Shown piece by piece: positions 10,064 through 18,233 of a DNA stretch of 31,768 bases. The notes under the pieces are model-generated. The model was not told the DNA's origin and ran no database searches. It saw only the letters and a program-made list of their open reading frames with translations. Numbering within the stretch: the stretch's first letter is position 1; each line of letters opens with the position of its first letter. The translations under genes were made by a program, and so were the position numbers. The stretch lies in IMG/VR virus record IMGVR_UViG_3300004369_000079, positions 1 through 31,768 of that record, one strand, 5' to 3'. The stretch is from a virus.

Positions 10064-10500
10064 GTGACGAAGGTGTCGCCCTTATCCGTCACTTTGAAGG
10101 TTGCTCGCTGGACGCTTATCTGTGCCCTGCTGGTGTCTGGACTGTTGGCTACGGCCATACTGGTGATGTTAGCGAAGGTGATGTAATTGATCAGGAGCAG
10201 GCGGAAGCGCTCTTGATCGAAGATTTGGAGGAGTTCGAGGGGTATGTCACCGCACTCTGTCAACGCAGCCTTGAGCAGTGTCAGTTCGACGCGCTGGTTT
10301 CGTGGGTTTTCAACCTGGGTCCAGGTAACTTCAAGAGCAGTACCCTATTGCGTCGGCTTAACGCTGGGGATCTTTGGGCTGTCCCTGATGAAATTAGGCG
10401 CTGGAATAAAGCTGGCGGGCGAGTTCTTAGCGGACTGGTCAAGCGCAGGGAAGCCGAAGCCCTGATGTTCCAGGGCCTAGACTGGCGCTCTGCCATTTAG
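10054..10500 (+). CDS. Endolysin, T4/P22-type muramidase (glycoside hydrolase family 24)
   Basis: A 148-residue lysozyme that should cleave the MurNAc-GlcNAc bond of peptidoglycan. The catalytic signature is intact: Glu15 in RHFEG, Cys24 and Thr30 (E-8aa-C-5aa-T), followed by VGYGHTG. The usual middle residue is Asp (T4 lysozyme E11/D20/T26); Cys at this place is known from P1 Lyz. The FDALVSWVFNLG segment (residues ~80-91) and the C-terminal RREAEALMFQG are typical of the family. There is no N-terminal signal or SAR anchor, so release should need a holin. ATG 10054 is preferred over GTG 10036 because it removes six non-conserved residues. The stop overlaps the convergent gene's stop. Confidence 0.93.
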   Translation: MQISDEGVALIRHFEGCSLDAYLCPAGVWTVGYGHTGDVSEGDVIDQEQAEALLIEDLEEFEGYVTALCQRSLEQCQFDALVSWVFNLGPGNFKSSTLLRRLNAGDLWAVPDEIRRWNKAGGRVLSGLVKRREAEALMFQGLDWRSAI

Positions 10501-10898
10501 TTATACGACACCCACTCGGGCTCTTCACCGCTCTCAAAGGCTTGGATAAGCGCACGATAGTGGTCTGAGACTTCTTTCTTGATGTGCTTCGCCCCTTTGA
10601 AGATGCTATTCTTCTTCTCCAGAAGCCTCTCTAAATGACCCCTTCCTAAATGCTCCTCGAGCCACAGGAAGAACTCCGTGGGGTTCTCTCCGAAGTATCG
10701 ATGGTGGTACGCGCAGAGACAGACCGCGTTGTCCAGGGACCATCTGACGCTGTTGTGGCGCCTTCCATGTATATGGGCGCAGTGAAGCCCTGGATCTCTC
10801 CCTCCGAAGGATTTGCCGCAGTATTCGCAGGCCCATCCAGCTTTAGCTCTAACACAATCGGAGAAGTGCGCGTCACAGGCTTCCCGCTTTAGAGCCAT
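10497..10898 (-). CDS. HNH endonuclease-like protein
   Basis: A 133-residue protein with zinc-finger pair CEYC (residues 24-27) and CLCAYHH (C-x-C...HH), and an HNH core LHCAHIHGRRHNSVRW then SLDNAV. Basic helices follow (LERLLEKKN). Such ββα-metal nucleases cut or nick DNA; in lambdoid phages the NinG recombination protein has the same Cys-x2-Cys plus H-N arrangement, so a recombination role is possible given the operon. An ATG at 10946 would add 16 residues, but ATG 10898 shares one base with the stop of the small upstream gene (TGATG), so coupling supports it. It is the last gene of the leftward operon. Confidence 0.8.
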   Translation of the reverse strand: MALKREACDAHFSDCVRAKAGWACEYCGKSFGGRDPGLHCAHIHGRRHNSVRWSLDNAVCLCAYHHRYFGENPTEFFLWLEEHLGRGHLERLLEKKNSIFKGAKHIKKEVSDHYRALIQAFESGEEPEWVSYN

Positions 10899-11035
10899 CA
10901 GTGGTCCTCCAACTGGTCTAGGAGCTGCAAAGCTACCCACCAGCACGGAAGGGCGACAAGTGCCCCTGGGAGAGCCGCTAGCAGCCCTAGGAGAGCGAAT
11001 AGGACTACCCCATACCCCAGTACCTGTTTAGGCAT
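10898..11035 (-). CDS. 45-residue hydrophobic membrane protein
   Basis: A tiny gene: ATG at 11035, TGA at 10898-10900 sharing its last base with the HNH gene's ATG. The product begins MPKQVLGYGVVLFALLGLLA and continues with another hydrophobic stretch (LPGALVALPCWWVALQLL) before an acidic end (DQLEDH). It would form one long or two short membrane helices. It overlaps the stop of the preceding gene by 8 nt, so it sits in an unbroken chain of coupled genes, the best evidence that it is translated. Its role is unknown; candidates are a membrane-modifying or superinfection protein. No homology is claimed. Confidence 0.5.
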   Translation of the reverse strand: MPKQVLGYGVVLFALLGLLAALPGALVALPCWWVALQLLDQLEDH

Positions 11036-11210
11036 TGTCGTCGCTCCTAGGGCCGTTTATGGCGCTTAGGCGGGGCGTATCATCCACAACCGCCTTCATT
11101 GCCTTCCTGGCGCGGCTTAAGAGGGCTGGATCGTCGGTTATTACCGTCAGTGTGACTTGAATCCAGCCGTCCTCATCCTCGTCGAGCTCTTCAAAGTGGA
11201 CGGAGCGCAT
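11028..11210 (-). CDS. 60-residue acidic protein (unknown)
   Basis: ATG 11210 is in a TGATG overlap with the stop of the upstream gene (a GTG at 11213 would add one residue). The product has an acidic N-terminal part (FEELDEDEDGW), a beta-strand-like VTLTVITDD, then a helix (LLSRARKAMKAVVDD) and a polar tail. The central part looks like a small alpha/beta fold, but no family is recognised. Its stop overlaps the start of the 45-residue membrane protein. It belongs to the early leftward operon; no function can be given. Confidence 0.5.
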   Translation of the reverse strand: MRSVHFEELDEDEDGWIQVTLTVITDDPALLSRARKAMKAVVDDTPRLSAINGPRSDDNA

Positions 11211-11413
11211 CACAGCCGCCCGTACAGCTTATTTATGGCCGCGTTAAGATCCGCATCGTTGTAGATGTAGAACACGTCAGAGAGCGTTTTAGAGCCCTCC
11301 TGAACGGTAATGCGGAAGGCATCGCTCCCGTATCCCGGCATATACTCGCAGCCTACCTGCTGATAGGCCGCGTTCCTGCGTAGACTTTCCTTCATGTTTC
11401 CGTAGTTATTCAT
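11210..11413 (-). CDS. 67-residue protein (unknown)
   Basis: ATG at 11413 lies inside the last codons of the metallophosphoesterase gene (8-nt overlap). The 67-residue product has a basic N-terminus (NMKESLRRNAAYQQV), a middle beta region (DAFRITVQEGSKTLSDVFYI) and a C-terminal helix (DLNAAINKLYGRL). No motif is recognised. Its position as a downstream cistron coupled on both sides (8-nt overlap before, 1-nt TGATG overlap after) is the main support. Confidence 0.5.
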   Translation of the reverse strand: MNNYGNMKESLRRNAAYQQVGCEYMPGYGSDAFRITVQEGSKTLSDVFYIYNDADLNAAINKLYGRL

Positions 11414-12593
11414 CGTATGTGCTCCTCAACACGTCGATTCCACAAGTTAAACGCATCTGCTCTCCAAACTCGGAGTGCATGACGATGCACTTCATATCAC
11501 GGCCACTTAAGTACCCACCTCCTACAGCGTAAGCGTCACGGGCGAGGGTTCTCATTTGCTCCACAATGCAGCCGTTGTATTCGACTCGATTGTCGTGGTG
11601 GTGGTGTCCCCGGAAGAACACCCTATGCCTGGTCGCTCCCCACTCCTCGGGCTTCTCCGTCGCCATAATTCCGGGGAGATCCCGGTCCTTTGTCTGGTGC
11701 CCGTGAACCACGCCGATAAGGCACTTGCCATGCTGGAGATAGTGTCGGGTGGTCGGGGCGTCGTGGACAATGACGCGGTTTTCATTGGCGTATAGGTTAC
11801 GGAAGAGGACGTTCAGGAAGTGGGCAAAGGTTTCGTCGTGGTTTCCAGGGGCGTTGATCAGTTCGACGATCTCATGCTTCTCGCGCATCCTCTCTAAGCA
11901 GCGCTTAATGATCCGCACCCCTACGTCAATCATCTTCGCTGTGCGTGAGTCCCGGTCGAGGACGTGTCCGCTACGCTCCGTGGTCCCCGTCATGTTTGTA
12001 TAGTGGAAGAAGTCTCCTAGATTAACGAGAACGCCGCGCTTCGAGGGAGGAGAGCGCTCAACGAGGTAGTCAACCGCGTTGCACATATCTTGTTCTGCGA
12101 TCTGTAGATCGAAGTTGTCGCCTGTTTCATCAGCCCAGGCGTACATCCCAACGTGAGGGTCGCCCCAAGGGTAGATACTCATTAGCTGATCGTTTACGTC
12201 GAGAGGTGCTGGGATGGCTTTGACAGGCTTCACGTCTTCGCAGAGCGCCTCGACGGCCTGCTTCATAATCTCTATCTGGGCTTCGCGGTCTAGGTTGGTC
12301 TTGACCCATTGCAACTTGGGCTGCCCATCCTCCCCGTAAAGCGTTGACGTACCCTTGACCACAAACGGGGCCGTGGTGGGCTTGTTGAGGTCATGCTCCG
12401 GGGCGTAGCCCATCTTCGCTGCCCTGGCCTTTACTCTTTCAATGGCCTGGCGAACGGTGCCCTGGCTTACTCCGCACTCTTTCGCGGCTCGCCGTATCGT
12501 CCCGATTTGCATGGTGGATTCAAGGTAGAATCGTTCCTTGTCAGAAACGCAGTAGGTAAGCAGTTCTGGGTCTAGCTTCTCTGGCGCAGCCAT
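11406..12593 (-). CDS. HTH-metallophosphoesterase fusion protein
   Basis: A 395-residue protein. Residues ~15-55 form a helix-turn-helix (RRAAKECGVSQGTVRQAIER). The C-terminal two thirds is a calcineurin-like metallophosphoesterase: GDPHVG (metal D-x-H), LVNLGDFFHY (GD), NAPGNHDE (GNHD), VVHGHQ and FFRGHHHHDN (GH-x-H). All metal-binding motifs are present, so it should hydrolyse phosphodiesters or phosphomonoesters, possibly nucleic-acid ends in the manner of SbcD/Mre11-type nucleases, guided by the DNA-binding domain. Substrate is not known. Genes of this build are common in environmental phages, usually unassigned. The ATG follows GGGAGGGGT. It lies downstream of the recombination genes. 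Confidence 0.8.
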   Translation of the reverse strand: MAAPEKLDPELLTYCVSDKERFYLESTMQIGTIRRAAKECGVSQGTVRQAIERVKARAAKMGYAPEHDLNKPTTAPFVVKGTSTLYGEDGQPKLQWVKTNLDREAQIEIMKQAVEALCEDVKPVKAIPAPLDVNDQLMSIYPWGDPHVGMYAWADETGDNFDLQIAEQDMCNAVDYLVERSPPSKRGVLVNLGDFFHYTNMTGTTERSGHVLDRDSRTAKMIDVGVRIIKRCLERMREKHEIVELINAPGNHDETFAHFLNVLFRNLYANENRVIVHDAPTTRHYLQHGKCLIGVVHGHQTKDRDLPGIMATEKPEEWGATRHRVFFRGHHHHDNRVEYNGCIVEQMRTLARDAYAVGGGYLSGRDMKCIVMHSEFGEQMRLTCGIDVLRSTYDE

Positions 12594-12612
12594 TACCCCT
12601 CCCCCTTGAGGT

Positions 12613-13056
12613 TTACGCCTGCGAGCGGCGTATCTGCATGAACTCTGAATCGTCGGGCACGGTAAGGTTTAAGCCAAGGTCGAGGCACCATTGGTTTACC
12701 TGCTCCATAAACTCATACATCTCGCCACGTTTGAGCTTTGACGTATGACGTAACTGGTTGTCAATCATAATCTTACCAGCCTTTATTGATTCAGTCCCCA
12801 GGAAGCGATATTTCACAATCGCCTTCATTTCTTCCTCGTCGAGCTCCGGTCGGGCCGGTTTGAAGTGGGCAACCATCTCCCGAATCCAGACGTGAAACAG
12901 CGCGTTCTGGTCGAGGGAACGCTTACCCTCGTAGGGTTTCACCTGTAGAGCTAAGGGCTTGGCCCAGTCCCAGGTGTCGAGGATGTGTTGCTTGAGGTTC
13001 GCAAAAACCTCGTCAATGCGTTGCTTGTTCTCAATACGCCAAAATTCCCCTTGCAT
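12613..13056 (-). CDS. NinB-like (lambda Orf family) recombination protein
   Basis: A 147-residue protein. The hallmark is KRSLDQNALFHVWIREM (residues ~45-61), matching the RSLDQN motif of lambda NinB/Orf. The C-terminal LKRGEMYEFMEQVNQWCLD fits the family's ExxxxxExVxxWC-like end. NinB/Orf proteins bind single-stranded DNA and SSB and can replace RecFOR functions to load recombinases. Presence beside an annealing protein, exonuclease and SSB supports a recombination mediator role. The N-terminus (residues 1-40) is less like lambda Orf. ATG 13056 comes just after the preceding stop (TGATTTATG). Confidence 0.7.
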   Translation of the reverse strand: MQGEFWRIENKQRIDEVFANLKQHILDTWDWAKPLALQVKPYEGKRSLDQNALFHVWIREMVAHFKPARPELDEEEMKAIVKYRFLGTESIKAGKIMIDNQLRHTSKLKRGEMYEFMEQVNQWCLDLGLNLTVPDDSEFMQIRRSQA

Positions 13057-13059
13057 AAA

Positions 13060-13293
13060 TCACGCTCCCTTTGCGATGCGCTGGTCACGCTCGCATCGAA
13101 TCTCATGGTGGTATTCCGCCTGCTCCACGGCCTCCTCGAGCTTCTCCATTGCGATACGCAGGTTGGGCTTGTCCTGGCCGCTGAGAACGGCATCAACGTC
13201 AACGGTCGTCAGCGCCTTGAGTACCGCCCGAGCTTGGTTCAGCGTCAGGCGGTCCTCTTTCTTCATCACCAGATAAGTAACCCGCTTAAACAT
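13060..13293 (-). CDS. 77-residue helical protein, paralogue of the 17614-17814 product
   Basis: ATG 13293 shares one base with the stop of the HTH gene (TGATG); a GTG at 13296 would add one residue. After a short basic N-terminus, the core LTLNQARAVLKALTTV...VLSGQDKPNLRIAMEKLEEAV aligns with LTEKQARALLRVLAHV...VLRGNEKASFRQAVKKIGKAW in the gene at 17614-17814 on the opposite strand: Leu-Thr, QARA, V-L-x-G, Lys, Arg-x-Ala and Lys all line up without gaps. A charged tail follows. The fold is probably a small helical bundle; function unknown. It is coupled to the regulator gene, so a regulatory or replication-accessory role is plausible. Confidence 0.6.
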   Translation of the reverse strand: MFKRVTYLVMKKEDRLTLNQARAVLKALTTVDVDAVLSGQDKPNLRIAMEKLEEAVEQAEYHHEIRCERDQRIAKGA

Positions 13294-13484
13294 CACTCCT
13301 CCAGAAAGTCCTCAAGGGGCCGGTTCACGGCCTTAGCGATACGCGCAGCGACGGAGAGCTTAACGTCACGCATCTGCCGCCAGCGGGCAACCTGGGTCGG
13401 GTGCACCTCAAGCACCCTCGCCAGGTCCGCGTTCTTCAGATCCTCTTCAAGCTGGATCGCAGCCAAACGGAGACCGAAGTCCAT
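13293..13484 (-). CDS. Cro/CI-type helix-turn-helix regulator
   Basis: A 63-residue protein consisting almost only of an XRE-family helix-turn-helix: NADLARVLEVHPTQVARWRQ holds the two helices (residues ~18-37), followed by LSVAARIAKAVNRPLEDFL, the typical third part of the domain. It lacks a dimerisation or cleavage domain, as in Cro. It probably represses early promoters; the 11-bp inverted pair at 15399-15409 and 15527-15537 is a possible target (inference). It is coupled on both sides by TGATG overlaps (with ssb upstream and the 77-residue gene downstream). Confidence 0.8.
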   Translation of the reverse strand: MDFGLRLAAIQLEEDLKNADLARVLEVHPTQVARWRQMRDVKLSVAARIAKAVNRPLEDFLEE

Positions 13485-13876
13485 CAGAATGGCACCTCAT
13501 CAGAGAAGTCATCATCGGCAGGCTTAAGCTTTGCAGGCTTTGACTCAGATCGAGACAGGAGCTGCAAGGACTGAATGACAATCTCAAAGGTTGGCACTTC
13601 TACCCCGTCCTTGTTTGTGAAACTTCCGTATTCCAGCTCGCCTTCAACGTAAACCTGAGAGCCTTTCTTGACGTATTGCCCGGCAATCTCTGCCACCTTT
13701 CCCCAAGCTGTGACGCGGTGCCAGGAGGTCTTGTCTTGCTTCTGCCCGTCCTGGGTCTTCCAAGATTTGTTTGTGGCGATGCTGAAATTGCAGACAGCCG
13801 TGCCATTTTTCGTGTGTCGAACCTCCGGGTCTTGCCCGACGTTCCCGAGGATGATCGCCTTATTGACTGAGCTCAT
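13484..13876 (-). CDS. ssb: Single-stranded DNA-binding protein
   Basis: A 130-residue protein with a canonical OB fold: VNKAIILGNVGQDPEVRHT at the start, NFSIATNKSW (residues ~30-39), WHRVTAWGKVAEIAGQYVKKG and VYVEGELEYGSF. The C-terminal acidic tip DDDFSDEVPF is the partner-binding tail of bacterial-type SSBs, so it can recruit replication and recombination proteins. It protects single strands during phage replication and recombination and probably works with the exonuclease and annealing protein in the same operon. The stop is coupled to the regulator gene; the start overlaps the exonuclease stop by 4 nt. Confidence 0.95.
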   Translation of the reverse strand: MSSVNKAIILGNVGQDPEVRHTKNGTAVCNFSIATNKSWKTQDGQKQDKTSWHRVTAWGKVAEIAGQYVKKGSQVYVEGELEYGSFTNKDGVEVPTFEIVIQSLQLLSRSESKPAKLKPADDDFSDEVPF

Positions 13877-14475
13877 GCCTTAATATCCTTCGCAAGTAAG
13901 TGAATGGTTTCGCAAGCTTCTGTGACCAGATCTTCTAGGGTCTTGATAAACGCCTCGTCTCGCTCAATCCGAACGATCAGAGTGTGCATATCGGGGTGGT
14001 GAGAAACGAAATCCCACCACGCCCTACCCGTGATCCACATACACCCCTGCACCTGGGGGATGTGCTTCGACGGCATGACGCCGCCTCTCAGGGTTTCAAC
14101 GTGGGTGTGAGGCAGGGGGCACTTGATCTCAATGCCACCATCCTCGCCCACGAAGCCATCCGGGGAGCAGCCTGCCTCGAGGGTTTCGTGCTTAAGGAAA
14201 CCCATCTCGACAACCTCATTCCCGGTCTCAAGCTCATAGTAAGCACGCGCCATCGGCTCCAGCTCCGTCCCCCGAGCCATCGCATCAGTCTGGGGGAAGG
14301 GAGTCGCCTGGCCGGTGACGAGCTCTGCCACGCACTGATTGACGTAGCCGTCAAATGACGCGGCACGCTTGCCAGTTGGAGTAATCAGCTTCAAGAACAT
14401 CGAGGCGGACGGCACGCCTAGACGCGCCGCCAGCCATTCTTCTGTCCCCTGCTCTACGGCAAGGACTCTCACCAT
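13873..14475 (-). CDS. YqaJ / lambda-exonuclease-family 5'-3' exonuclease
   Basis: A 200-residue protein. The N-terminal GTEEWLAARLGVPSAS (residues 10-25) is the YqaJ signature (G-T/S-x-EW-x3-R-x-G). GTELEP gives a catalytic Glu at 71; GCSPDGF holds Asp106, and GIEIKCP gives Glu116 and Lys118, the D-(x)n-E-x-K site equivalent to lambda exonuclease D119/E129/K131. QVQGCMWITG (residues ~139-148) is another typical family segment. It should resect double-strand ends to give 3' single strands for the annealing protein encoded two genes upstream. All active-site residues are present; length is near that of lambda exonuclease (226). Confidence 0.9.
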   Translation of the reverse strand: MVRVLAVEQGTEEWLAARLGVPSASMFLKLITPTGKRAASFDGYVNQCVAELVTGQATPFPQTDAMARGTELEPMARAYYELETGNEVVEMGFLKHETLEAGCSPDGFVGEDGGIEIKCPLPHTHVETLRGGVMPSKHIPQVQGCMWITGRAWWDFVSHHPDMHTLIVRIERDEAFIKTLEDLVTEACETIHLLAKDIKA

Positions 14476-14774
14476 GACCTCCGCTCTTCAACAGTGACAA
14501 CGCGCTTTGTCGTGGTCTTTTGCAGAGTGAAGTGGCTGATGGGATAGCGACGTTTGCCAGTCTCTTCCCAGACAATCGTGACGGTGTGAGAGTCAGCGAC
14601 CCAGCATCCGTCCTCCGTTTGACCGTCATCAAGGTAGACGTAAGCCTTTTGGCCGCTTTCGGCGCATCGCTCGGTCAGAAGCACATACTCGCCACCTGTC
14701 TTGGCCTTTGCCAAGGCATGAATGTCTGCAAGAGCAGGGCTTGATAGAGTTAGAGCAAAAAGTAGGGCTCTCAT
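14469..14774 (-). CDS. Small secreted/periplasmic protein with Sec signal (unknown)
   Basis: A 101-residue protein starting with an apparent Sec signal peptide MRALLFALTLSSPALA, with an AxA-type cleavage before DIHALAK. The mature part is beta-rich: YVLLTERCAES, QKAYVYLDDGQTEDGCWV, TVTIVWEETGKRRYPI, with two cysteines that could form a disulphide outside the cytoplasm. No family is recognised, although the GKKAYVY...GCW pattern occurs in small exported phage proteins. Its place between the annealing protein and exonuclease genes is odd for an exported product. It overlaps the exonuclease start by 7 nt. It may act on the envelope, for example against superinfection, but that is a guess. Confidence 0.6.
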   Translation of the reverse strand: MRALLFALTLSSPALADIHALAKAKTGGEYVLLTERCAESGQKAYVYLDDGQTEDGCWVADSHTVTIVWEETGKRRYPISHFTLQKTTTKRVVTVEERRSW

Positions 14775-14776
14775 TT

Positions 14777-15340
14777 TTATGCCTCCATCTTCTTCTTCAG
14801 CAGGGTCAGCGCTTTCTCAAAGCGTTCCTTGGGCATATCCGAAAGGGCTTTGATTTTGAACGCGGCAAAGAACTTCTCGAGGTCCGTGTTGGTCTCGACA
14901 ATCATGTCGTGGAGAAGCTGCTGCTCTTTGTCGTCGATCTTCTCGGGCTCAGTCCCTTGAGGGAGATCCTCACCAGCGTAGATGTAATGGCCGAGGCCCA
15001 TCATGGAGAGGGTCTTCACAAGGCAGCGCATCTTGCAGGTGTTGCGGGCGAAGGCGTCCGGGTTCTGGATCGCTTTGTTACGATGGTCCATGACAGGCAA
15101 CCACATAACCTGGCTGTGCTCCTGGCCGCAATGGCGGACTGTAACCTTACAGACGTACTCGACGGTCCCGTCCGGGAAGTCCTCGGAGCAGAACTCATAG
15201 GTGGTATCGGGGAAGTACTGGCACATCACGCCCCAGGCCCAAGCCCAGGACAGGTATGACAAGCCTTGCTTCTTCTCGACGTGCTCAGAAACATCAATCT
15301 TGGACAGGGTTGCCCAAACGTGCGCGGGAAGGGTTTGCAT
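14777..15340 (-). CDS. Sak3 / DUF1071-like single-strand annealing protein
   Basis: A 187-residue protein and first gene of the leftward operon. The N-terminal segment IDVSEHVEKKQGLSYLSWAW (residues ~15-34), then YEFCSEDFPDGT, MWLPVMDHRNKAIQNPDA (DG/DHxNKAI) and MRCLVKTLSMMGLGHYIYAG match the DUF1071/Sak3 family of phage single-strand annealing proteins (RAD52-like superfamily). The C-terminal helical tail (DKEQQLLHDMIVETNTDLEK) is also usual. It should anneal complementary strands made by the YqaJ exonuclease, giving a Red-like recombination system together with SSB. ATG 15340 follows GAGGAGACACAAAA. Transcription probably begins at the promoter around 15370-15398. Confidence 0.85.
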   Translation of the reverse strand: MQTLPAHVWATLSKIDVSEHVEKKQGLSYLSWAWAWGVMCQYFPDTTYEFCSEDFPDGTVEYVCKVTVRHCGQEHSQVMWLPVMDHRNKAIQNPDAFARNTCKMRCLVKTLSMMGLGHYIYAGEDLPQGTEPEKIDDKEQQLLHDMIVETNTDLEKFFAAFKIKALSDMPKERFEKALTLLKKKMEA

Positions 15341-15369
15341 TTTTGTGTCTCCTCATCAATCCCAAAGAC

Positions 15370-15398
15370 ATTATGCCGATACTGTTTTGACCATGCAA
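15370..15398 (-). promoter_or_regulatory. Candidate leftward early promoter
   Basis: Read on the minus strand: -35 TTGCAT (15398-15393), 17-nt spacer, -10 CATAAT (15375-15370; five of six consensus bases). It points to the annealing protein gene, whose ATG is 30 nt downstream of the -10. The 11-bp operator-like element CGATTTACCTG abuts the -35. Assigned by eye only. Confidence 0.5.
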
Positions 15399-15537
15399 CA
15401 GGTAAATCGACAAAATGCCGAAAAAGTTACCCCATTTTCTTCAGAGCGCAGTGGTCTTTTGAGGACTATTGGTGCCCCCATGCTGGAACTACCTGCAATT
15501 TCCCGTTAGATCAGCGTCATCAGCAACGATTTACCTG
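15399..15537. repeat. Inverted pair of 11-bp operator-like elements
   Basis: CAGGTAAATCG at 15399-15409 and its exact reverse complement CGATTTACCTG at 15527-15537, with 117 nt between. The first abuts the -35 of the leftward promoter. An identical pair in a phage early control region suggests regulator binding sites, perhaps for the Cro-like protein at 13293-13484, but that link is inference. Confidence 0.55.
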
Positions 15538-16009
15538 CGGCTCGTAACACCGCCCCCACGCTTTGTGGCACCTGTACGCTGTTTATTCCCGTCCTCAAAG
15601 GTCGTGATCTAACATCTCGCTTTGCTGCTGGCTGCGCGATGCGACAGCACATCTTGTGGTGAGCAGTACCAGTCGGCACAAGATATGGGTAGCAGCATCT
15701 AAAGAAGGGACGAGGGAAGGTTGCTTCGAGATCACCCAAGAGGTTAGACTAGCCCTGCGTCGGGTGAACGATTCCAATCTTTCGCTCGTCGGATCTTTAG
15801 GGGCTGGTAACCCCACCGACGCGTAAAACCCTACTCCTCTCCCGTGGGGTTTGCAACAGTTTGGCCGGGTGGGCGTCTCCTCTATCCCCTTGCACCCTTT
15901 ACGCTTTCGAGCGACCGGCCCCTTCTTCCTTATTCCAAAAAATTATTTCAGTCCTCTCCCGTGACCCTTTATCTTTAGGGGTCCAAGCCTTCGCGTTTGA
16001 GAGGACAAA

Positions 16010-17470
16010 ATGCAGTTAAGACCACATCAAGAGAAAGCCGTCGAGATGCTTCGGGACTCTCTGAGGAGAGGAAAGACCCGCCCCATCCTCGCGGCCCCCT
16101 GTTCCTTCGGAAAGACCATCACTGCGGCCTACCTTCTCTCTGAGGCAGCCAAGAAGGGAAAGCGCGGCATCTTTGTTTGCGACCGCATCAAGCTGGTCCA
16201 GCAGGCCCTGAATGCCTTTGACGCGGAAGGGCTAGACGTTGGCGTGATGCAGGGGAGCCATGAGCGGGCGAACTACCGCGCTCCGATTCAGATCGCCTCG
16301 ATCCAGACGATAGCTCGGCGGAAGCATCTCCCCGAGTTCGACTTTGCCATCGTCGATGAGGCCCATGTGCACTACAAAGCGACTCAGTTCGCGATGGATC
16401 GCTATACGGCGGTCCCGTTTATCGGCCTGACGGCCACCCCGTACAGTAAAGGGCTGGGCCTGGCCTACAACGATCTTGTCTGCCCGATCTCCCCTAATGA
16501 ACTCCTAGAAGGCGGCTACCTCACCCCGGTGAAATATTTCGGTGGGGCCTCGGTCGATGTCTCAAAGATCAAGAGCCGCAACCTGCGGACGGGTGGGTCC
16601 GACTACGATCCTTTAGCCTTGGGGAAAGCCACGGAAGACGACCAGACCCTTGTCGGGGACATCATCGCGAACTGGCTCAAGCACGCGGAAGGGAGGCAGA
16701 CGATTGCCTTCTCGCCCTCGATCAAGCACAGCCGGGATATGGTGGACCAGTTCAACGCGGCTGGGATCAGCGCCGTTCACATCGATGGGTATATGGACGA
16801 CGAGGAGCGCCAGGTTATCTACCGCGCTCACGACGAAGGCGAGTTCCTGATCCTGTCGTGTTCGAGGCTGCTCAATGTCGGCTATGACGCTCCTAAGGTC
16901 TCATGCCTCATCGACTGCTTCCCCACGAAATCGCTGATCGCCTACGTCCAGAGGGCGGGCAGGATCATGCGTACCGCTGAAGGCAAGGAAGACGCCATCT
17001 ACCTCGACCACGCGGGGAACGTGGCAAGGCACGGGTTCGCGGAGGACATCGAGCCCGAGTGCCTTGATACCAGCGAGAAGGGCTTCGCTGAGAAGAATCA
17101 GGTCAAGGAGAAAAAAGAAAAGAAGACCCACGACTGCCCCCAATGTTACCGAAAGTTCGTTGGTATGCGATGCGCCTGCGGCTATACCCATCCCATTAAA
17201 GATCGCCTCGAGACCGACGGCAGCGAGCTCAAGCGCCTGGAGAAGGTGAAGAAGATCCCCCTTTCACGGGGCGACTGGTACGGCCAACTGGCCCTCTATG
17301 CGCACTACCAGGGCTATAAAAGGGGTTGGGCAGCGCATCAGTATCGGCAGAAGTTCGGGGCCTGGCCTGAGAGGATCACGCCGAGCTCCTGCAAGGACAT
17401 TTCCCCCGAGGTTATGGGGTTCATCAAGCATCAGCAGATCAGGAGGGCGAATGCTCGCAGAAGAGCTTAA
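16010..17470 (+). CDS. SF2 DEAH-box helicase, RadD-like
   Basis: A 486-residue superfamily 2 helicase. Motif I is PCSFGKT (residues 30-36, a variant Walker A); motif II is DEAH (116-119); motif III is GLTATP; the second RecA-like domain has HIDGYMDDEER, LLNVGYDAP and motif VI QRAGRIMR. The C-terminal part holds a zinc-ribbon-like CPQCYRKF...CACGY cluster after a Lys/Glu-rich linker. Domain order and the C-terminal zinc cluster resemble RadD (YejH), which aids recombination and replication repair. It could unwind forks, open the origin, or reverse forks for the phage. It is the first gene of the rightward early operon. No DnaB-type replicative helicase is seen in the window. Confidence 0.88.
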   Translation: MQLRPHQEKAVEMLRDSLRRGKTRPILAAPCSFGKTITAAYLLSEAAKKGKRGIFVCDRIKLVQQALNAFDAEGLDVGVMQGSHERANYRAPIQIASIQTIARRKHLPEFDFAIVDEAHVHYKATQFAMDRYTAVPFIGLTATPYSKGLGLAYNDLVCPISPNELLEGGYLTPVKYFGGASVDVSKIKSRNLRTGGSDYDPLALGKATEDDQTLVGDIIANWLKHAEGRQTIAFSPSIKHSRDMVDQFNAAGISAVHIDGYMDDEERQVIYRAHDEGEFLILSCSRLLNVGYDAPKVSCLIDCFPTKSLIAYVQRAGRIMRTAEGKEDAIYLDHAGNVARHGFAEDIEPECLDTSEKGFAEKNQVKEKKEKKTHDCPQCYRKFVGMRCACGYTHPIKDRLETDGSELKRLEKVKKIPLSRGDWYGQLALYAHYQGYKRGWAAHQYRQKFGAWPERITPSSCKDISPEVMGFIKHQQIRRANARRRA

Positions 17471-17666
17471 GTGGATGTTATCCAAGGGCTGGCACGCCCA
17501 GTATCGCCATGAGACCTACCGGGAACGGATCACCCGCCCGGTCTACGAATCGAAATTGAGAAGCAAAGTCACGCATGGAGAGGAAACGAATGATCTCTGG
17601 GGAGGGAGCAGAAATGCAGAGCTTGGAGCGTGGAACGAGGAAGCGGCGGACCCTCGAGCAATATGA
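17451..17666 (+). CDS. 71-residue protein (unknown)
   Basis: The ATG overlaps the end of the helicase gene by 20 nt and follows AGGAGGG, a strong ribosome binding site. The product is polar and charged: a helical N-terminus (LAEELKWMLSKGWHAQYRHE), a basic middle (RERITRPVYESKLRSK) and an acidic end. No motif or family is recognised. The downstream gene starts inside it in another frame. Translation is supported by the ribosome binding site and coupling; function is unknown. Confidence 0.5.
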   Translation: MLAEELKWMLSKGWHAQYRHETYRERITRPVYESKLRSKVTHGEETNDLWGGSRNAELGAWNEEAADPRAI

Positions 17667-17814
17667 GGAGGAGATGCTCACGGAAAAACAAGCTAGAGCT
17701 CTGCTCAGGGTTCTAGCGCACGTCAACGAAGCTGACGTTTTGAGGGGCAATGAGAAGGCGTCCTTCCGCCAGGCGGTGAAGAAGATCGGGAAAGCATGGA
17801 GCAACAGACAATGA
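17614..17814 (+). CDS. 66-residue helical protein, paralogue of the 13060-13293 product
   Basis: ATG 17614 follows GGGGAGGGAG at 5 nt; ATGs at 17590 (with AGAGGA upstream) and 17575 are in-frame alternatives. After a basic, Glu-rich N-terminus (RGTRKRRTLEQYEEEM), the core LTEKQARALLRVLAHV then VLRGNEKASFRQAVKKIGKAW lines up without gaps with the protein at 13060-13293, encoded on the other strand in the leftward operon. It is probably a small helical bundle with a nucleic-acid- or protein-binding face. The 3' end overlaps the zinc-finger gene. Function is unknown. Confidence 0.55.
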   Translation: MQSLERGTRKRRTLEQYEEEMLTEKQARALLRVLAHVNEADVLRGNEKASFRQAVKKIGKAWSNRQ

Positions 17815-18233
17815 TTGATGAACTACTAGATCGATTGGATAAGGTGAGATCGACGGGTAAAGACAAGTGGGTGGCCTGCTGCCCTGTCCACGGGGACCGG
17901 AACCCCTCGATGAGCATTACCGAGAAGGATGGCCGCGTGCTGTGCCATTGCTTTGCCTGTGGAGCCAATGGCCTCGAGGTGGTGGAAGCGCTAGCACTTC
18001 CTGCAAGCGTCCTCTTTGAGAAGCCGCTGGAGCAGGGCTATATCCCCAAGAAGATTCAGGAGGAAATCGAGATTGACCGCCTAGTTATCAGGGGAGCAGA
18101 GGAACAGGTGAAAAGAGGTAAGCCATTGAGTTACAATGACTTTAAGCGGTTGAAGTTAGCGAAAAGCCGCATTGAGGCATTAGAAAAGCGTTTTTTAGAA
18201 CAAAACAGTCTAAACAAAGTATGTACATCGTAA
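17811..18233 (+). CDS. Stand-alone CHC2 zinc-finger (primase-type) protein
   Basis: About 140 residues. The N-terminus holds a DnaG-type CHC2 zinc finger: ACCPVHGDRNPSMSI and VLCHCFACGANG, with probable ligands Cys24, His27, Cys47 and Cys50. No TOPRIM catalytic domain follows; the rest is a charged helical tail (residues ~75-140). It may recognise priming sites or recruit a host primase. ATG 17811 forms an ATGA overlap with the previous stop and has GGAG nine bases upstream; ATG 17796 is an alternative adding five residues. The 3' third is more A/T-rich than its surroundings. It belongs to the early rightward operon. Confidence 0.75.
   Translation: MIDELLDRLDKVRSTGKDKWVACCPVHGDRNPSMSITEKDGRVLCHCFACGANGLEVVEALALPASVLFEKPLEQGYIPKKIQEEIEIDRLVIRGAEEQVKRGKPLSYNDFKRLKLAKSRIEALEKRFLEQNSLNKVCTS

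What the first reader, a model, noticed from the sequence alone, without database searches (positions are those of the whole stretch)
13060..17814. Paralogous mini-proteins encoded in the two opposing early operons
The products of 13060-13293 (-) and 17614-17814 (+) align without gaps over about 40 residues: LT-x2-QARA-x-L ... VL-x-G-x2-K-x3-R-x-A-x2-K. One is coupled to the Cro-like regulator, the other to the CHC2 protein. A duplicated gene retained in both divergent transcripts suggests a role needed in each or a heteromeric pair; the family is not known to me.
Basis: seen in the sequence. Interest (0 to 1): 0.55.

Follow-up and report, generated by a model that had tools for sequence, protein, structure and literature searches.

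The report
Two distant cousins in phage operons
Two tiny helical phage proteins in opposite early operons are true but very old relatives: one is a fixed companion of a helicase gene, the other an optional gene present in some related phages and absent from others, so they are probably not an obligatory pair.

Summary
The 77-aa product of 13060-13293(-), here "A", and the 66-aa product of 17614-17814(+), "B", align without gaps over 44 residues (41% identity). They score far above shuffles, and their profiles find each other and nothing else. The reading [quoted passage not shown] is only partly right. B is a core gene: it follows the helicase in 18 of 18 records where both are readable. A is an optional cassette: it sits between the Cro-like gene and ninB in 6 of 13 records that show this junction, and is missing in 7, all of which carry B. 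One relative has a gene-exact empty site. A also occurs in other phages without this recombination operon. The A/B split is far older than these phages. No Pfam, PHROGs, NCBIfam, PADLOC or PDB-sequence family matched convincingly. AlphaFold2 predicts small all-helical proteins with a shared heptad core. Most likely both are small self-associating accessory proteins of early phage DNA metabolism; that function is inferred from position and anatomy, not shown. In passing: an unlisted overlapping gene (17451-17666) and a conserved, covarying, probably structured RNA at 15440-15830.

The parts
13060..13293 (-). gene A, 77 aa; optional helical mini-protein between the HTH gene and ninB
   Evidence: dN far below dS between relatives
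17614..17814 (+). gene B, 66 aa; core helical mini-protein downstream of the helicase; start MQS with an upstream gggagg ribosome-binding site
13291..13295 (-). TGATG overlap: HTH stop with A start; the same TGATG joins HTH directly to ninB in L025, which lacks A
13293..13484 (-). Cro/C1-type HTH protein upstream of A
   Evidence: Pfam HTH_26 5.5e-6
12613..13056 (-). NinB/Orf-like recombination mediator downstream of A
   Evidence: phrog_72 5.9e-29
16010..17470 (+). DEAD/DEAH-type DNA helicase, first gene of the rightward operon
   Evidence: phrog_16 4.7e-84
17451..17666 (+). gene C, 71 aa, overlapping the helicase end and the B start in another frame
   Evidence: found in 17 of 18 records with helicase and B (not L027), plus a partial match in L056
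17811..18233 (+). CHC2 zinc-ribbon primase-like protein; conserved start is at 17811, overlapping the B stop (ORF list gives 17796)
   Evidence: Pfam Zn_ribbon_DnaG 2.1e-10; start contexts

Best explanation
A and B are two anciently separated members of one small family of all-helical phage proteins. Shown: homology, purifying selection, B as a core gene of the helicase operon, A as an optional gene-exact cassette. Predicted only: small helical proteins with a heptad core, probably stable only as a homodimer or homo-oligomer. Inferred only: B is a non-enzymatic accessory (adaptor or loading) protein acting with the helicase and zinc-ribbon protein at the start of phage DNA replication; A is a related accessory that some phages add to the recombination operon (annealase, exonuclease, SSB, NinB), where it works on its own rather than as B's obligatory partner.
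For: Homology. Purifying selection: A window vs L006 dN 0.14, dS 1.47; B codons 22-62 L016 vs L025 dN 0.09, dS saturated. Operon position of B: helicase upstream in 18 of 18 records with both readable; CHC2 immediately downstream in 15 of 18. A cassette: present in 6 and absent in 7 of 13 HTH-ninB junctions; L025 lacks A between neighbours 86% (HTH) and 98% (NinB) identical. Predicted fold: A pLDDT 83, pTM 0.64, helices 18-29, 33-36, 41-76; B pLDDT 79, pTM 0.52, helices 2-20, 24-39, 46-63. Shared heptad hydrophobics L45/F51, M49/V55, L52/I58, V56/W62. All neighbours with a family match in both early operons are DNA-metabolism or regulatory proteins.
Against: No experiment and no characterised relative. 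In records L006-L010 A lies among small genes of other phages (near nuclease or DNA polymerase genes), and in L009 upstream of an ATPase gene, so its link to NinB/SSB is not general. The alignments are shallow (18 and 11 rows), so the models are modest; the N-terminus of A is low-confidence although it is its most conserved stretch. The oligomeric state was not computed.
Confidence: 0.35

Rival explanations
1. A and B form an obligatory heteromer, or one recently duplicated gene is retained because both operons need it.
For: They share a heptad core and co-occur in 4 records: the window, G001, G002 and G005.
Against: 7 of 7 records whose HTH-ninB junction is readable and empty carry B without A. 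A and B are separated by a long branch at 100/100 support. The A-only records are fragments, so they do not test the reverse.
Confidence: 0.07
2. A (and perhaps B) is a counter-defence or host-takeover protein; A as a cassette that comes and goes would fit, for example a helical-hairpin nucleotide sponge like Acb2/Tad1.
For: A is an optional, horizontally distributed small gene. Weak structural match to Tad1 hairpins: 7uav_C Z 5.0, 50 residues aligned, rmsd 2.2 A, 20% identity.
Against: Z 5 is within the noise for helical hairpins by the tool's own note. No PADLOC or convincing Pfam/PHROGs match. B is a fixed part of the replication operon.
Confidence: 0.15
3. They are small nucleic-acid-binding regulators, A autoregulating with the Cro-like protein and B acting on the replication region.
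For: B is basic (pI 9.7-10.6, net +3.6 to +6.6 in 11 of 11 sequences examined). K42, R46 and K51 are invariant in both families. A is coupled to an HTH gene.
Against: A is near neutral in the window group (net -1.2 to +1.6). No HTH or ribbon-helix-helix Pfam family recurs; the only DNA-binding hit was one of 18 members to NrtR_WHD at E 0.0049. The predicted helices do not look like a classical HTH (judged by eye).
Confidence: 0.15
4. The likeness is chance or convergence between two amphipathic helical proteins.
For: Short, helix-rich sequences; default BLASTP shows nothing; the A profile reaches the most distant B members only at E 0.01-0.08.
Against: Column-shuffle and sequence-shuffle controls; reciprocal profile hits limited to each other among 9,501 open frames, duplicates included; 11 shared invariant positions.
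Confidence: 0.04

Closest known systems
Exodeoxyribonuclease VII small subunit (XseB)
   Same: Small helical hairpin of similar size; top two PDB matches of the A model: 8txr_e Z 6.1 (60 residues, rmsd 2.5 A) and 1vp7_E Z 5.9 (66 residues, rmsd 2.5 A); one phage protein of this name in the B list at E 2.7.
   Different: 11-13% identity; no Pfam match among 18 members at E<=1 that names this family; no sequence match to a solved XseB chain at E<=10. Z near 6 is common for helical pairs (note).
Acb2/Tad1 helical hairpin (nucleotide-sponge counter-defence proteins)
   Same: Helical hairpin of similar length; weak structural hits (7uav_C Z 5.0, 50 residues, rmsd 2.2 A; one BFVD row at prob 0.13).
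   Different: No family match; ligand-binding residues not tested; B sits in a replication operon.
Small uncharacterised genes of the lambda nin region (ninB/ninG neighbourhood)
   Same: A lies in an operon that holds ninB (phrog_72) and a ninG/Rap-like gene (phrog_5034), as small genes do in lambda (recalled).
   Different: No convincing sequence match of A or B to a described nin gene in PHROGs or NCBIfam.

Membership tests
Exodeoxyribonuclease VII small subunit | matches the family's sequence profile | tested here: not met
   18 members scanned against Pfam at E<=1: only DUF6058, DUF6714, NrtR_WHD and RGS_DHEX listed; 4 proteins scanned against NCBIfam at E<=10: none
Exodeoxyribonuclease VII small subunit | helical-hairpin fold | tested here: inconclusive
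   Z 6.1 (60 residues, rmsd 2.5 A) and 5.9 (66 residues, rmsd 2.5 A) for A, within the range of common helical arrangements
Exodeoxyribonuclease VII small subunit | partner large subunit XseA in the same genome | not tested
   no search for XseA was made
Acb2/Tad1 hairpin proteins | hairpin fold | tested here: inconclusive
   7uav_C Z 5.0, 50 residues, rmsd 2.2 A
Acb2/Tad1 hairpin proteins | binds cyclic nucleotides | not testable with these tools
   needs a binding assay
Cro/C1-type or other HTH regulators | HTH profile match | tested here: not met
   Pfam: A matched only DUF6058 (E 0.067) and B nothing at E<=1; of 18 members one hit NrtR_WHD at 0.0049
Ribbon-helix-helix regulators | N-terminal strand then two helices; profile match | tested here: inconclusive
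   no Pfam RHH match; A residues 1-11 are predicted as coil, but RHH strands form only in dimers (the dimer remark is recalled)

The most novel reading that the evidence does not exclude
A and B found a new family of self-associating helical adaptor proteins of phage DNA metabolism, in which one paralogue is a fixed replication-operon component and the other a mobile cassette that links or retargets the recombination machinery, or interferes with the B-type protein of competing phages.
Probability: 0.12. Interest if true: 0.5.

Novelty: new member of a known kind. Interest (0 to 1): 0.25.

Why it matters
It defines a small homologous protein family that the libraries searched here do not hold, with one core and one cassette branch, and gives a natural with/without comparison (window versus L025) for testing what A adds. 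It also shows that homology between genes of two divergent operons does not by itself mean recent duplication or a heteromer. As biology it is ordinary phage mosaicism until a function is shown.

Tried and rejected
Family and database searches for A and B: Pfam, PHROGs, NCBIfam, PADLOC, PDB sequences, annotated phages and plasmids gave nothing convincing. Two genome-contig scans found no relative. Foldseek against viral models gave no E<=0.001 for either model; VIA-align gave only helical arrangements with Z<8. No metagenome-contig scan was available.

Other phages with related helicases: in 7 of the 8 fetched regions the helicase gene is followed by a primase gene with no B annotated between, and in the Pelagibacter phage the primase precedes the helicase. 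The A and B profiles found no credible relative in them (best stray hit of the A profile outside the two families E 0.38, in L035).

Literature: four searches, of which I saw listings and abstract openings only. None targeted this family by name, as it has none; I make no claim about what is in print.

Considered and dropped: the similarity of gene C to the helicase C-terminus (10 of 20 residues, E 0.10) is too weak; gene conversion between A and B was considered only by eye and not tested.

In one search gene C was first translated in a wrong frame (17453); this was corrected (17451). The C row is therefore not used.

The record tally was typed in. G017 (L024), where NinB is seen but no HTH, was left out of the 13 junctions; it lacks A and has B.

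Full report
Observation. The two ORFs are at the stated places. Call the 77-aa product of 13060-13293(-) A and the 66-aa product of 17614-17814(+) B. They align without gaps over 44 residues with 18 identities. The Smith-Waterman score is 78, against maxima of 52 and 60 in two sets of 20,000 shuffles. Among 22 small window proteins A-B is the best of 231 pairs, the next scoring 45. Within the virus record each finds the other at E about 7e-6, with no third copy. Default BLASTP saw nothing; with word size 2 and no composition correction E is 4e-9 for that single comparison.

Families. Relatives were found only in IMG/VR contigs. With truncated ones there are 28 records including the window: 11 with A, 21 with B, 4 with both (window, G001, G002, G005). 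Profile-profile comparison gives 94.7% and E 6e-8, with a score of 41.0 against at most 17.0 in 300 column shuffles. With only divergent members of each family it is 34.5 against at most 19.7. Among 9,501 open frames of all loci held at that point (duplicates included) each profile's only credible non-self hits are members of the other family, the weakest at E 0.08-0.11. Eleven columns are invariant across 18 sequences. Both genes are under purifying selection.

Anatomy and comparison. B follows the helicase in 18 of 18 records where both are readable, with gene C between them in 17 of 18 (not found in L027). CHC2 follows directly in 15 of 18. In L024, L050 and L051 another gene starts exactly at the B stop; in L050 it reads as a cytosine-methyltransferase-like ORF (motif recalled). 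A lies between the HTH gene and ninB in 6 of 13 records showing that junction and is absent in 7. The cleanest empty site is L025, where SSB, HTH and NinB are 91, 86 and 98% identical to the window's and HTH joins NinB by the same TGATG overlap that joins HTH to A in the window. Whether this was gain or loss cannot be told. In L006-L010 A lies in other phages among small genes, without a detected annealase-exonuclease-SSB-NinB operon; L006-L008 carry homologues of two small genes from the end of the window's recombination operon nearby. The tree puts A and B on opposite sides of a 100/100 branch of about 9 changes per column (saturated), while branches within families are at most 0.6. In-place duplication in this phage lineage is therefore unlikely; ancient paralogy plus transfer of A fits better.

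Structure. AlphaFold2 with the combined alignment gives A a short helix, a turn and a long helix (pLDDT 83, pTM 0.64), and, with the B alignment, B three helices (pLDDT 79, pTM 0.52). Aligned heptad positions are hydrophobic in both families: L45/F51, M49/V55, L52/I58, V56/W62. Fold searches return generic helical arrangements. The best for A are exonuclease VII small subunits, Z 6.1 (60 residues, rmsd 2.5 A) and 5.9 (66 residues, rmsd 2.5 A), in the range that the tool calls common for helical bundles; for B nothing stands out.

Mechanism. Shown: two homologous, selected genes, one core and one cassette, in translationally coupled early DNA-metabolism operons. Predicted: small helical proteins with a coiled-coil-like core. 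Inferred: homo-oligomeric accessory proteins, B for the helicase/zinc-ribbon complex and A for the recombination operon or for an independent cassette function such as counter-defence. An obligatory A-B heteromer is unlikely because the A-less records keep B.

Verdict. This is a small new orphan family, ordinary in kind. I rate interest 0.25. The conserved structured element at 15440-15830, noted in passing, may deserve more attention than the finding itself.

Noticed in passing
window 15440-15830 (+), between the divergent operons: Conserved non-coding element: 95-96% identical over about 240 nt to L066/L050/L068; RNA fold z -3.0 for 15580-15870; consensus structure of 12 loci with 69 pairs, 9 of them kept through changes on both sides. 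No Rfam match at E<=1 and none in annotated phages. In 7 relatives with the recombination operon on the helicase strand it lies upstream of the helicase on the opposite strand. Possibly an undescribed structured RNA.
   Followed up: partly
window 17451-17666 (+): Gene C (71 aa), with an AGGAGG site, overlaps the helicase end and the B start; conserved in 17 of 18 helicase-B records (not L027), so part of B's N-terminus is encoded in two frames at once.
   Followed up: partly
L024, L050, L051 directly after B: A gene, cytosine-methyltransferase-like in L050, is inserted exactly at the B stop between B and CHC2, another gene-exact cassette.
   Followed up: partly
window 17811-18233 (+): The CHC2 protein is only the zinc-ribbon part plus a tail; in 7 of the 8 other phage regions fetched a longer primase gene (about 285-330 aa) follows the helicase directly. 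No catalytic primase domain was noticed in the window.
   Followed up: no
recombination operon, window 10497-15340 (-) versus L016, L024, L050, L063, L066, L068: The recombination operon runs opposite to the helicase in the window group but on the same strand in these relatives.
   Followed up: no
L016, L021, L024, L063, L066, L067: Where the window has a full SSB these phages show a small protein (85-93 aa open frames) ending in an acidic SSB-like tip (likeness judged by eye).
   Followed up: no
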